Below, one piece after another: positions 2,900 through 5,653 of a stretch of DNA of 6,088 nt. The stretch is taken from the NCBI GenBank assembly GCA_030544185.1, contig JAUNRO010000199.1, forward strand, positions 1-6,088, in the 5' to 3' direction. The notes under the pieces were generated by a model. It saw only the letters and a list, made by a program, of their open reading frames with translations, did no database searches and was not told the DNA's origin. The translations under genes were made by a program, and so were the position numbers. Every line of letters begins with the position of its first letter. Within the stretch, counting starts at the first letter, position 1. The stretch is from Propionibacteriaceae bacterium (GTDB lineage: Bacteria; Actinomycetota; Actinomycetes; Propionibacteriales; Propionibacteriaceae).

Positions 2900-3490
2900 T
2901 CAGTGAGCCAGGTCCTTGGCCTGCAGGGCCACCTTGTGCTTCACGTTGTCCATCTGACGGGCCAGCTGCAGGCGGGTCAGCTCCGCATCCTTGCCCAGCG
3001 TCTTGCGGGTCTGGCCCACGTTGCGCTGCAGCTTGGCGGCGGAGTCCTGGGCCCGCCAGGCAAGGCCGGGGCGGCCCTCGGTGTCGCCGGCCGCGATGAG
3101 CGAGCCGCCGAGCAGGGCGATGTTCTTCAGCAGTTCGTTGCGCGCGAGTGAGCGCTCCTCCGGCGTCAGGCCCTTGGCATTGAAGCCCGCGAGCTGCGGC
3201 ACCATCGACAGCGCGATCAGACCGGCGCCGAAACGGCGGCCCTTGCCGAAGATCATGCCGAGGCCGCCGGCGACCTGGAGACCTCCGGTGATCCGGGCGA
3301 GCGTCTCGGTGTCCTCGGGCACAGCGGCGGCCACCTCTGCGGGGGCGACCTTGCGGGCGAGCGGGACCACGGCGGCGGCGAAGCGTTCCTGCTCCGCTGC
3401 ATAGGGCGCGGGATCCTTGAGGGCCTTGACGCCGTTCACGACGAAATAGCCGGCGAGCATGGTTCGGGCGGCAGCACGCAGCAGGTTCAT
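2900..3490 (-). CDS. DoxX-family integral membrane protein with basic C-terminal tail
   Basis: This 196-residue protein resembles actinobacterial members of the DoxX family, small four-helix membrane proteins whose biochemical role is mostly unsettled (some are linked to redox or oxidative-stress functions). Hydrophobic segments lie at about 8-22, 66-82, 88-103 and 121-134. The family-typical motifs are YFVVNGVKALKDP (15-27), DTETLARITGGLQV (60-73), RNELLKNIALLGG (117-129) and DTEGRPGLAWRA (136-147). Residues 148-196 form a Lys/Arg/Gln-rich, Cys-free, probably helical tail (QDSAAKLQRNVGQTRKTLG, then ELTRLQLARQMDNVKHKV) that looks cytosolic. The first ATG is preferred because the first membrane helix begins almost immediately, as in relatives. 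It lies only 9 bases after the nagA stop, has no good Shine-Dalgarno sequence and is therefore probably translated by coupling or reinitiation. I give no gene symbol because no specific function can be read from the sequence. Confidence 0.8.
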   Translation of the reverse strand: MNLLRAAARTMLAGYFVVNGVKALKDPAPYAAEQERFAAAVVPLARKVAPAEVAAAVPEDTETLARITGGLQVAGGLGMIFGKGRRFGAGLIALSMVPQLAGFNAKGLTPEERSLARNELLKNIALLGGSLIAAGDTEGRPGLAWRAQDSAAKLQRNVGQTRKTLGKDAELTRLQLARQMDNVKHKVALQAKDLAH

Positions 3491-3499
3491 GGCTCATGT

Positions 3500-4690
3500 C
3501 TACCGCGTTGGTGCGGTCGTGCCAACACCGGGGTGGGTGTCGATTTGTGCACCGCGGCGCCAAACTGCGGTCACGTTCCAGCGGCGGTCCAGGGCCACCA
3601 GATCCGCCCAGGCGCCGGGAGCGAGGGTGCCCACGTCGCGGAGGCCCAGATAGCGTGCCGGCAGCACCGTGAGCGAGCGGACCGCCGCCCGCCACGCGAT
3701 CCCCGCGCCGACCGCGCCCCGCAACGCCGCGTCCAGCGTGAGCGTGCTCCCGGCGATCGTCTGCGTCCCTGCGATCCGTGCGATCCCGCCGCGCACGGTG
3801 ACGGGCTGGGAGCCGAGTTGATAGGCCCCGTCGCAGCAGCCGGTCGCCGCCATCGCATCGGTGATCAGGATCAGGCGATCGGCGTGGGCGGTGAACAGCC
3901 ACGCGATCAGCTCGGGCGCCAGGTGGACGCCGTCGAGGATGACCTCCAGCCACACGCGCGGGTCCTCGAGTAGGGCCAGGATCGGCCCCGGGGCGCGGTG
4001 GTGCAGCGGCGGCATCGCGTTGAACAGGTGCGTCGCACCCGTCACCCCCGCCGCGATCGCTGCCCGCGCCGTGGCCAGGTCGGCGCCGGTGTGGCCGAGG
4101 GCGGCGATCACGCCCCGCTCGCGCAGCAGGGCAACGGTGCGCAGCCCGCCGGCACGCTCGGCGGCGAGCGTCACCATCCGCACCGTGCCCCGTGCGGCGT
4201 CCAGCACCCCGGCCACCTCGGCCGGATCCGGATCGCGCAGGTGCTGTTCGGCGTGAGCGCCCTTGTGCGCCGCAGCGAGCCACGGCCCCTCCAGATGGAT
4301 GCCCGCCAGCGACCCGTCGTGGACCAGCGGGGCGAGCGCGCGGACCTGCGCGTGGAGCAGCTCCAGCGGTTCGGTGACCAGCGAGGCCATGGCCGTCGTG
4401 GTGCCATGGGCGCGATGCAGCTCCAGCACCCGCTCCGGATCCTCGCTGAACGCGACCCCGCCGGCCCCGTGGCAGTGGGCGTCGATGAACCCGGGGACGA
4501 GGGTGATGTCGCCCAGCTCGACCGGCGCCGTCCCGGGCGTACGCCCGCTCCATCCGGTGCCGCGCGCCGCATCCCCGGGCGCGGAGGGGGCAGGACCGAC
4601 CCCAGCGATGTGCGCACCGTCGAGGACGACCTCGCCCGGGGCGAAGACCTCTTCGCCGGTGAACACCCGGGCGGCGCGGAAGACGGTCAC
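3500..4690 (-). CDS. nagA: N-acetylglucosamine-6-phosphate deacetylase
   Basis: NagA hydrolyses N-acetylglucosamine 6-phosphate to glucosamine 6-phosphate and acetate, feeding cell-wall sugar recycling or chitin/GlcNAc catabolism in the cytosol. The 396-residue protein is an amidohydrolase-superfamily member of normal NagA length. It has a small N-terminal beta domain (MTVFRAARVF onward), the barrel entry PGFIDAHCHG (66-75) with the H72-x-H74 metal pair, IHLEGPW with E134, GHTGAD with H200, THLFNAMPPL (220-229) with H221, DGVHL with H256, and the catalytic aspartate D278 in LITDAM. The C-terminal part contains AGSTLTLDAAL and the final beta-domain motif GTLAPGAWADLVALD (354-368). Start GTG 4690 is set by AGGAG at 4700-4696 and by where the beta domain begins. 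The open frame upstream to 5458 lies antisense to the SRAP gene and is discounted. The start overlaps the stop of a small upstream ORF by GTGA. No nagB, GlcNAc transporter or NagC-type regulator is adjacent, so the role in recycling versus uptake cannot be decided. Confidence 0.94.
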   Translation of the reverse strand: MTVFRAARVFTGEEVFAPGEVVLDGAHIAGVGPAPSAPGDAARGTGWSGRTPGTAPVELGDITLVPGFIDAHCHGAGGVAFSEDPERVLELHRAHGTTTAMASLVTEPLELLHAQVRALAPLVHDGSLAGIHLEGPWLAAAHKGAHAEQHLRDPDPAEVAGVLDAARGTVRMVTLAAERAGGLRTVALLRERGVIAALGHTGADLATARAAIAAGVTGATHLFNAMPPLHHRAPGPILALLEDPRVWLEVILDGVHLAPELIAWLFTAHADRLILITDAMAATGCCDGAYQLGSQPVTVRGGIARIAGTQTIAGSTLTLDAALRGAVGAGIAWRAAVRSLTVLPARYLGLRDVGTLAPGAWADLVALDRRWNVTAVWRRGAQIDTHPGVGTTAPTR

Positions 4691-4788
4691 CAGAACTCCT
4701 GCCTGACCGGCTTGCCGCGACCGCGGATCGGGCGTTGCACCGCGTGGGTGGTGGTGTGCGACAGAGGGAACGCGACGCTCGGGCTCAT
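4687..4788 (-). CDS. Small 33-residue ORF translationally coupled to nagA, function unknown
   Basis: I do not recognise this protein. The frame opens with ATG 4788 and ends with TGA at 4689-4687, which overlaps the nagA GTG as GTGA. A strong Shine-Dalgarno run (AGGAGGAGG, 4805-4797) lies 8 bases before the ATG. Of 33 codons, 30 end in G or C, against 20 of 33 G/C at first and 19 of 33 at second positions, the bias of real genes in this genome. The peptide begins MSPSVAFPLS, has HTTTH at 11-15, and ends with a basic stretch RGRGKPVRQEFW (22-33). It has no Cys, no acidic residue except E31 and no hydrophobic membrane span. The codons for R-Q-E also form the nagA ribosome binding site. An in-frame ATG at 4824 would give 45 residues but has poor ribosome-binding context. 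It could be a real small basic protein or a leader peptide whose translation opens nagA. Conservation would decide. Confidence 0.6.
   Translation of the reverse strand: MSPSVAFPLSHTTTHAVQRPIRGRGKPVRQEFW
4696..4700 (-). promoter_or_regulatory. Shine-Dalgarno sequence that fixes the nagA start
   Basis: AGGAG on the minus strand lies 5 bases (TTCTG) before GTG 4690. It selects this start over the long open upstream frame and lies wholly within the last codons of the small ORF, so ribosomes finishing that ORF would pass over it just before nagA initiation. Confidence 0.8.
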
Positions 4789-4865
4789 CGGTGCCGCCTC
4801 CTCCTGCTGTCCTCGTGGCCTCATGGCCGTCTCGATCCTCACACACGATCAGCCGGCAGCGGTCT

Positions 4866-4882
4866 GCCAGCTCCCCGCTGGC
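4866..4882. repeat. Dyad GCCAGC-TCCCC-GCTGGC in the divergent promoter region
   Basis: This is a perfect inverted repeat with 6-base arms and a 5-base centre, ending 32 bases before the putative SRAP-gene -10 hexamer and so just upstream of its -35 zone. It is overlapped by a second pairing, CAGCGG (4857-4862) with CCGCTG (4875-4880). It could be a transcription-factor site shared by the two divergent units. It may also be a chance feature of GC-rich DNA. Confidence 0.3.
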
Positions 4883-4914
4883 CGCCGGTCGAGGCCGACG
4901 CACCGGCGGCGGAC

Positions 4915-4920
4915 TACGGT
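4915..4920 (+). promoter_or_regulatory. Candidate -10 element for a leaderless SRAP-gene transcript
   Basis: TACGGT matches TANNNT and is followed by exactly 7 bases (GGGTCGG) before GTG 4928, placing the transcription start on the start codon. No recognisable -35 hexamer precedes it. Because the catalytic cysteine must be the second residue, the GTG is fixed independently, which makes the coincidence with the -10 spacing more persuasive. Confidence 0.55.
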
Positions 4921-4927
4921 GGGTCGG

Positions 4928-5653
4928 GTGTGTGGACGTTATGCGGCCTCGGCCGATCTTGCCCAACTCGTCGCGGAGTTCGAGGTCGAGGAGGTGGAGC
5001 AGGGCCCCGAGGGTCCGAGCTGGAACGTGGCGCCGACCGACCCGGTGCCGGCGATCGTCGAGCGCCTGCCCAAGGACGACCCCGACGGGGCCGCCGTGCG
5101 CAAGCTCGTCCAACTGCGGTGGGGCCTGGTCCCGTCCTGGTCGAAGGACGTCCGGGGCGGGGCCCGGATGATCAACGCGCGCTTCGAGACCGTCGCGGAG
5201 AAGCCGGCCTTCCGCAAGGCCTTCGCGGCCCGGCGGTGCCTGTTGCCCGCCGACGGCTACTACGAGTGGTACGCCGGGAGCGACCCCAGGCAGAAGCAGC
5301 CGTTCTTCATCCACCGCGGGGACGGGGACCTGCTGGTGATGGCGGGGATCTATGAGTTCTGGCGCGACGACACCCGCCCGGCCGGCGACCCCGGGGCCTG
5401 GGTGGCCTCGTGCTCGATCATCACGACCACCGCGACCGATTCCGTGGGCCACCTCCACGACCGGATGCCGATGATCATCGCCCGCGAGGCCTGGGCGGAG
5501 TGGCTCGACCCACGCCGCACCGATCCCGCGGAGGCGCTCGACCTCCTGTGCGTGACCGGCGCCGATCAGCTGGCGGCCTATGCGGTCGGCCGGGCCGTCG
5601 GCAATGTCCGCAACAACGGCCCCGAGCTCGTCGAGCCGCTGGAACAGCCGTGA
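4928..5653 (+). CDS. SOS response-associated (SRAP/HMCES/YedK) abasic-site DNA-protein crosslinking protein
   Basis: SRAP proteins recognise abasic sites in single-stranded DNA and trap them as a thiazolidine crosslink through the N-terminal cysteine, shielding the lesion during replication. The 241-residue protein contains every expected element: initiator then C2-G3-R4-Y5, WNVAPT (32-37; N33), WGLVPSW (65-71), NARFET (83-88; N83, R85, E87), CLLPADGYYEW (104-114; E113), FAGIYEFW-like MAGIYEFW (138-145), SIITTTAT (163-170) and HDRMP (177-181; H177). The start must be GTG 4928 because removal of the initiator has to expose C2; the in-frame extension to 3998 runs antisense through nagA and is discounted. 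There is no Shine-Dalgarno sequence; a TANNNT hexamer 7 bases upstream suggests a leaderless message. The stop overlaps the start of the next gene as GTGA. In older annotations the family is called a peptidase, but a crosslinking role is the current understanding. Mycobacterial relatives also lie beside aroA (recalled, not checked). Confidence 0.94.
   Translation: MCGRYAASADLAQLVAEFEVEEVEQGPEGPSWNVAPTDPVPAIVERLPKDDPDGAAVRKLVQLRWGLVPSWSKDVRGGARMINARFETVAEKPAFRKAFAARRCLLPADGYYEWYAGSDPRQKQPFFIHRGDGDLLVMAGIYEFWRDDTRPAGDPGAWVASCSIITTTATDSVGHLHDRMPMIIAREAWAEWLDPRRTDPAEALDLLCVTGADQLAAYAVGRAVGNVRNNGPELVEPLEQP

What the first reader, a model, noticed from the sequence alone, without database searches (positions are those of the whole stretch)
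4687..4824. Unannotated 33-residue small ORF overlapping the nagA start
Direct observations: ATG 4788 with an AGGAGGAGG run 8 bases upstream; 30 of 33 third positions are G or C versus about 60% at the other two; the stop overlaps nagA GTG as GTGA; and the nagA Shine-Dalgarno sequence is embedded in the codons for R-Q-E near the C-terminus. This is the pattern of a genuine, translationally coupled small gene or leader peptide that length cut-offs would miss. The peptide is basic with an HTTTH motif and a GKPVRQEFW end, and I recognise no family. It might gate nagA translation or be a small protein in its own right.
Basis: partly seen in the sequence, partly recalled or inferred. Interest (0 to 1): 0.72.

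Follow-up and report, generated by a model that had tools for sequence, protein, structure and literature searches.

The report
Small ORF coupled to nagA start
A 33-codon reading frame that ends exactly where a sugar-degrading gene begins looks genuinely translated and probably hands ribosomes on to that gene; it may be the scar of lost upstream operon genes rather than a new protein.

Summary
A 33-codon ORF lies at 4687-4788 (-), with AGGAGGAGG 8 nt before its ATG, G/C at 30 of 33 third positions, and a stop overlapping nagA's GTG (GTGA). An open frame ending there is ordinary (12,850 of 20,000 shuffles); start + Shine-Dalgarno + GC3 together are not (2 of 20,000). It is probably translated and coupled to nagA. 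Conservation is not shown: one database match, a 33-aa copy with one substitution, and only chance-level matches in 198 family genomes. Its codon score lies below 95.5% of gene windows. Context explains more. In Propionibacteriaceae the nagA start overlaps the upstream stop in 17 of 30 loci examined. The two closest relatives have gntR (G082, ATGA overlap) or nagB (G083) at this place; here only the small ORF is left. Its last codons resemble the G083 nagB end (15/18 nt; 0 of 428 control gene ends reach this, but no profile signal); its start weakly resembles gntR. Best reading: a coupling uORF, possibly a deletion scar of gntR/nagB, with no peptide function shown. Architecture as in uPPE2-PPE2 of M. 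tuberculosis.

The parts
4687..4788 (-). 33-codon small ORF (MSPSVAFPLSHTTTHAVQRPIRGRGKPVRQEFW), proposed coupling uORF
   Evidence: one relative P0004
4797..4805 (-). AGGAGGAGG, Shine-Dalgarno of the small ORF, 8 nt before its ATG
4687..4690 (-). GTGA: stop of the small ORF overlapping the nagA start by 4 nt
4696..4700 (-). AGGAG, Shine-Dalgarno of nagA inside the last codons of the small ORF, 5 nt before the nagA GTG
4680..4713 (-). hairpin around the nagA start (9 of 10 pairs, 14-nt loop holding the AGGAG); not unusual for this sequence
4699..4716 (-). 18 nt resembling the 3' part of G083 nagB (15 of 18, in codon register); possible relic
   Evidence: against:
3500..4690 (-). nagA, N-acetylglucosamine-6-phosphate deacetylase
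   Evidence: TIGR00221, 233.4 bits against cut-off 225.65
2900..3490 (-). doxX, next gene downstream of nagA
   Evidence: PF07681
4928..5653 (+). SRAP gene, divergent neighbour
   Evidence: PF02586

Best explanation
The small ORF is a translated upstream cistron (uORF) whose main effect is to bring ribosomes to nagA. Ribosomes bind AGGAGGAGG, translate 33 codons and stop at the TGA that shares GTGA with the nagA start; the same or a newly loaded ribosome, helped by the AGGAG inside the last codons, then starts nagA. It stands where relatives have a real upstream gene: in this family nagA is often coupled to gntR or nagB, and here neither is present. The ORF may itself be what a deletion left. 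Shown: the anatomy, its improbability by chance, the absence of gntR and nagB between nagA and SRAP, the overlapping arrangement in relatives. Inferred: translation, coupling, lack of a peptide function, and the scar origin.
For: SD + GC3 + start in the overlap frame in 2 of 20,000 shuffles. nagA start aligns with the starts of relatives, so the overlap is not a mis-called start. nagA start overlaps the upstream stop in 17 of 30 family loci, among them G082, the closest relative; for 5 of the 17 the start is inferred because the alignment begins at residue 39-64. gntR-nagB-nagA order in 8 genomes and gntR-nagA in 6. P0004 keeps start, length and stop region. Precedents: 13 of 14 tested overlapping pairs strictly coupled (PMC6728339, abstract); uPPE2 must be translated for PPE2 (PMC11260477, passages).
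Against: No transcript, ribosome or protein data. nagA has its own AGGAG and might start independently. Codon score below 95.5% of 1,575 gene windows, and 44.6% of windows in one antisense frame reach it; 65.3% of windows in another antisense frame have GC3 of 30 or more. No relative other than P0004, and P0004's neighbours could not be read. The hairpin at the nagA start is not unusual (52 of 1000 shuffles, 25% of 1,730 segments as stable), so the RNA-unfolding form of coupling has no special support.
Confidence: 0.65

Rival explanations
1. Deletion scar: the ORF is a fusion of the first codons of gntR (with its SD) and the last codons of nagB, left when most of both genes was lost. It may or may not serve coupling (this can be true together with the best explanation).
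For: gntR-nagB-nagA is the order in 8 genomes, and nagB is missing between gntR and nagA in 6. 18 nt match the G083 nagB end at 15 positions in register: 1 of 300 codon shuffles against G083 and 0 of 428 control gene ends. gntR start: profile match in register with the start codon, 33 of 2000 shuffles; 6 of 1000 against G082; DNA 9 of 300.
Against: nagB profile: no signal (537 of 2000 shuffles as good); 5 of 100 shuffles reach 15/18 against 29 nagB tails; 9-mer score 199 of 5000 anchored, 1124 of 5000 unanchored. Protein alignment to upstream genes of relatives: 83 of 300 shuffles as good. gntR: 9 of 428 and 36 of 428 control genes score as high, best of 29 gntR starts 110 of 1000 shuffles. 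Leader DNA upstream of the ORF does not resemble that of gntR in G082 (82 and 90 of 300), and the motif before gntR is absent. The idea arose from looking at the sequences.
Confidence: 0.3
2. A functional small protein of 33 aa, basic, made together with NagA.
For: GC3 of 30 of 33 equals that of the window's genes (0.85-0.93); positive G/C skew is used as a sign of purifying selection in M. tuberculosis (PMC9094748, passages).
Against: No family in Pfam for it or P0004, only a chance-level NCBIfam hit; one relative in the protein database (that search needs shared 5-residue words, so distant relatives can be missed); nothing at this place in G082 or G083; low codon score.
Confidence: 0.1
3. 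Regulatory leader peptide that senses a condition by stalling and gates nagA.
For: Position at the start of nagA with the nagA SD inside the last codons.
Against: No Rfam family, no terminator-like site, no run of one codon, no unusual fold (z -1.22, 22 of 200 shuffles at least as stable), peptide not conserved in other genomes.
Confidence: 0.06
4. Chance ORF that is not translated or without consequence.
For: The overlap and a 33-codon open frame occur in most shuffles (12,850 of 20,000); low codon score.
Against: SD and GC3 together in 2 of 20,000 shuffles; same start and end in P0004.
Confidence: 0.16
5. Copy of a dispersed MIRU-like repeat that inserts at start codons.
For: MIRUs do this at -4 nt in mycobacteria (PMC12548453, passage). 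No second contig with a nagA or SRAP of 90% or more identity is listed, so P0004's neighbours are unknown.
Against: No direct repeat in 4680-4940 (that stretch only); only short chance-level matches in 198 family genomes. The window's own genome is not held, so copy number is untested.
Confidence: 0.03

Closest known systems
uPPE2-PPE2 uORF pair of Mycobacterium tuberculosis (PMC11260477, passages read)
   Same: Short out-of-frame ORF whose stop overlaps the start of the main gene by 4 nt (AUGA there, GTGA here); expression of the main gene depends on uORF translation there.
   Different: There a B12 riboswitch controls the uORF and PPE2 lacks an SD; here no riboswitch was found, nagA has its own AGGAG, and coupling is untested.
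gntR-nagA and nagB-nagA overlapping pairs of Propionibacteriaceae (this work)
   Same: Upstream stop overlaps the nagA start by 1 or 4 nt.
   Different: There the upstream gene is a full-length regulator or enzyme; here it has 33 codons.
Mycobacterial interspersed repetitive units (MIRUs; passage of PMC12548453)
   Same: A short ORF coupled at -4 nt to the start codon of an older gene.
   Different: Repetition not seen in relatives and not testable in the own genome.
Translated short ORFs of M. tuberculosis (PMC9094748, abstract and passages)
   Same: Short frames in a high-GC actinobacterium that annotation misses.
   Different: Most of those show little G/C skew; this one shows strong skew.

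Membership tests
Coupled uORF (termination-reinitiation pair) | Stop of a short ORF overlaps or nearly touches the start of the main gene on the same strand | tested here: met
   GTGA at 4690-4687
Coupled uORF (termination-reinitiation pair) | Own ribosome-binding site and start for the short ORF | tested here: met
   AGGAGGAGG, 8 nt, ATG; SD in 588 of 20,000 shuffles
Coupled uORF (termination-reinitiation pair) | Main gene expression depends on translation of the short ORF | not testable with these tools
   needs reporters
Functional small protein | Conserved reading frame with synonymous bias across species | tested here: inconclusive
   no cross-species homologue found; only P0004, whose DNA could not be read
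Functional small protein | Codon usage like that of the genome's genes | tested here: inconclusive
   GC3 like genes, codon score below 95.5% of gene windows
gntR/nagB deletion scar | Significant similarity of the 3' end to nagB | tested here: inconclusive
   15/18 nt, 0 of 428 controls, but no profile signal
gntR/nagB deletion scar | Significant similarity of the 5' end to gntR | tested here: inconclusive
   33 of 2000 and 6 of 1000, but 9 of 428 and 36 of 428 controls, 110 of 1000
MIRU-like repeat | Several copies at start codons in the genome | not testable with these tools
   own genome not held; nothing in 198 relatives beyond short matches

The most novel reading that the evidence does not exclude
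One deletion removed most of gntR and nagB but kept gntR's ribosome-binding start and nagB's end, leaving a 33-codon fusion that survives only as a ribosome-delivery device for nagA: a case in which the loss of operon genes creates a uORF.
Probability: 0.25. Interest if true: 0.5.

Novelty: new member of a known kind. Interest (0 to 1): 0.3.

Why it matters
uORFs coupled by a 4-nt overlap are reported in Actinobacteria (PMC11260477), but how they arise is seldom visible. Here the neighbours in close relatives suggest a route: an operon loses its upstream genes, the coupled gene goes on using an upstream stop, and a short frame stays behind. It also warns that gene-like GC3 and an SD in such a frame can be inherited from a lost gene and need not mean a new small protein.

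Tried and rejected
nagA start further upstream: rejected, relatives start at the same residue or within a few codons. Start at ATG 4824 or GTG 4842: in frame but without SD. Known RNA family: none at gathering score in the window. Terminator or sigma-70-type promoter between 4600 and 5000: none by consensus scan, which says little for actinobacterial promoters. Hairpin at the nagA start as a switch: present, not unusual. Mobile or phage origin: no match in plasmids or phages, and none for one exact 26-nt pattern in viral contigs. Homology of the whole leader to the nagB end region of G083, to the DNA between nagA and SRAP in G082, or to DNA upstream of SRAP in G083: not above shuffles (32, 44 and 85 of 200 at one scoring, 127, 133 and 147 at the other). 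The codon-score control used rsgA in a wrong frame and is replaced. NCBIfam hit of the 51-aa frame to formimidoylglutamate deiminase (E 0.022, 13.5 bits against a cut-off of 362): taken as chance. Short stretch like the motif before gntR in G082, G130 and G138: no match in the window.

Full report
What is there. On the minus strand, divergent from SRAP (4928-5653, +), lie a 33-codon ORF (4788-4687), nagA (4690-3500), doxX (3490-2900) and aroA (2877-1480) (families; the names rsgA and hisN for the remaining genes are my reading and were not searched). Every detail of the finding was confirmed. The supported start is ATG 4788; the ATG at 4824 has no Shine-Dalgarno.

Is it more than chance? With nagA's GTGA fixed, 12,850 of 20,000 dinucleotide shuffles of the 237-nt upstream region leave the overlap frame open for 33 or more codons and 10,007 have a start giving 25 or more codons; an SD is added in 588, GC3 of 0.9 or more in 72, both in 2. 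So the overlap and the open frame prove nothing, while SD plus GC3 do. These features were chosen after the sequence had been seen. On the other side, a codon score trained on six window genes puts the ORF below 95.5% of 1,575 in-frame gene windows; 44.6% of open windows in one antisense frame reach it too, although only 53 of 26,720 open shuffles of the ORF do.

Conservation. The protein search found one relative, P0004: 33 aa, F7L, on a 2797-nt contig. In 198 genomes of the family, 145 gave some match at E up to 10, the best 0.016 per genome, which is what 198 searches give by chance; none of the matches listed lies beside nagA in G082 or G083. DNA matches were short. Plasmids and phages gave none, nor did one exact pattern in viral contigs. 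The window's own genome is not held. The nearest other nagA proteins are 73% (G082), 70% (Granulicoccus sp. GXG6511) and 70% (G083) identical by BLASTP.

Context. 42 SRAP rows were examined (30 of the 110 family genomes with a strong match, plus earlier loci; two genomes appear twice, and some rows are paralogues, cut contigs or one Chloroflexota locus). In 25 of 42 doxX is divergent from SRAP at 31-121 bp; nagA is divergent from SRAP only in G082, 2983 bp away, with gntR and a DUF222 gene between. G083 has nagA-doxX-aroA on one contig, preceded by nagB, and SRAP on another contig after a nanE and a BNR-repeat gene. A nag cluster was thus probably inserted between doxX and SRAP in this clade (inference). 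In the family, comparing the lists, gntR lies about 810-935 bp before nagA in 8 genomes (G001, G003, G081, G132, G133, G135, G136, G140), each with a nagB end read directly before nagA, and next to nagA in 6 (G002, G064, G082, G130, G134, G138). Only nagA matches at E up to 1e-90 were considered. The nagA start overlaps the upstream stop by 1 or 4 nt in 17 of 30 loci (the best 30 of 61 genomes with a match); the other 13 have a gap, no long upstream ORF or an uncertain start. nagA is therefore often a coupled cistron, and the window has lost both usual partners between nagA and SRAP.

Is the ORF a scar? For nagB: 15 of 18 nt match G083 in codon register; 1 of 300 codon shuffles against G083, 5 of 100 against 29 nagB tails, 0 of 428 control gene ends (the controls include other nagB genes and have approximate starts). 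Against: no profile signal (537 of 2000), 9-mer score 199 of 5000 anchored and 1124 of 5000 unanchored. For gntR: profile alignment in register from the start codon, 33 of 2000; against G082 6 of 1000; mean over 29 gntR starts 33 of 500; DNA 9 and 12 of 300. Against: 9 of 428 and 36 of 428 control genes score as high, best of 29 gntR starts 110 of 1000, no resemblance of the upstream DNA (82 and 90 of 300), and the motif found before gntR is absent. Protein alignment to all upstream genes of relatives: 83 of 300 shuffles as good. The idea came from looking at the sequences, so the small figures flatter it. I give the scar about 0.3.

Mechanism. Initiation at AGGAGGAGG-N8-ATG, 33 codons, stop inside GTGA, then reinitiation or easier initiation at nagA helped by AGGAG. 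Both published models, RNA unfolding and reinitiation, allow this, and the review names short uORFs that deliver ribosomes (PMC12548453, abstract and passages). 13 of 14 tested overlapping pairs were strictly coupled (PMC6728339, abstract). The closest tested case is uPPE2-PPE2 (PMC11260477, passages). In M. tuberculosis most newly found ORFs, many of 50 codons or fewer, are judged non-functional by G/C skew, with 90 exceptions (PMC9094748, abstract and passages); by skew this ORF would be an exception, unless its skew is inherited from a lost gene.

Verdict. Real and probably translated; a coupled uORF of a known kind; peptide function unsupported; origin as an operon scar possible and testable.

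Noticed in passing
window 3500-4927; L124 1-5954; L093; L125: nagA sits between doxX and SRAP here and in G082, a place that is a bare 31-121 bp divergent spacer in 25 of 42 SRAP rows: an insertion site for amino-sugar genes in this clade; in G083 nanE and a BNR-repeat gene lie before SRAP.
   Followed up: partly
L102, L103, L104, L124 upstream of gntR: G130 and G138 share GATGTCTGACGTTGTGTCATTATAGGCATG before gntR, and G082 has ATGTCTGAC at L124:3057-3049: a possible operator of this NanR-like regulator, absent from the window.
   Followed up: partly
P0008 and P0128 (protein database): A nagA (68%) and a SRAP (82%) are both listed with a longest contig of 6415 nt, suggesting another nagA-SRAP neighbour pair whose leader could not be read.
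   Followed up: no
L124 3154-5154 (+): A DUF222 gene lies between gntR and SRAP in G082, suggesting that this spot accepts further insertions.
   Followed up: no
P0004 (protein database): The copy of the small ORF is on a 2797-nt contig, yet no nagA or SRAP of 73-99% (nagA) or 83-99% (SRAP) identity is listed besides the window's own; whether its neighbours are the same is open.
   Followed up: no
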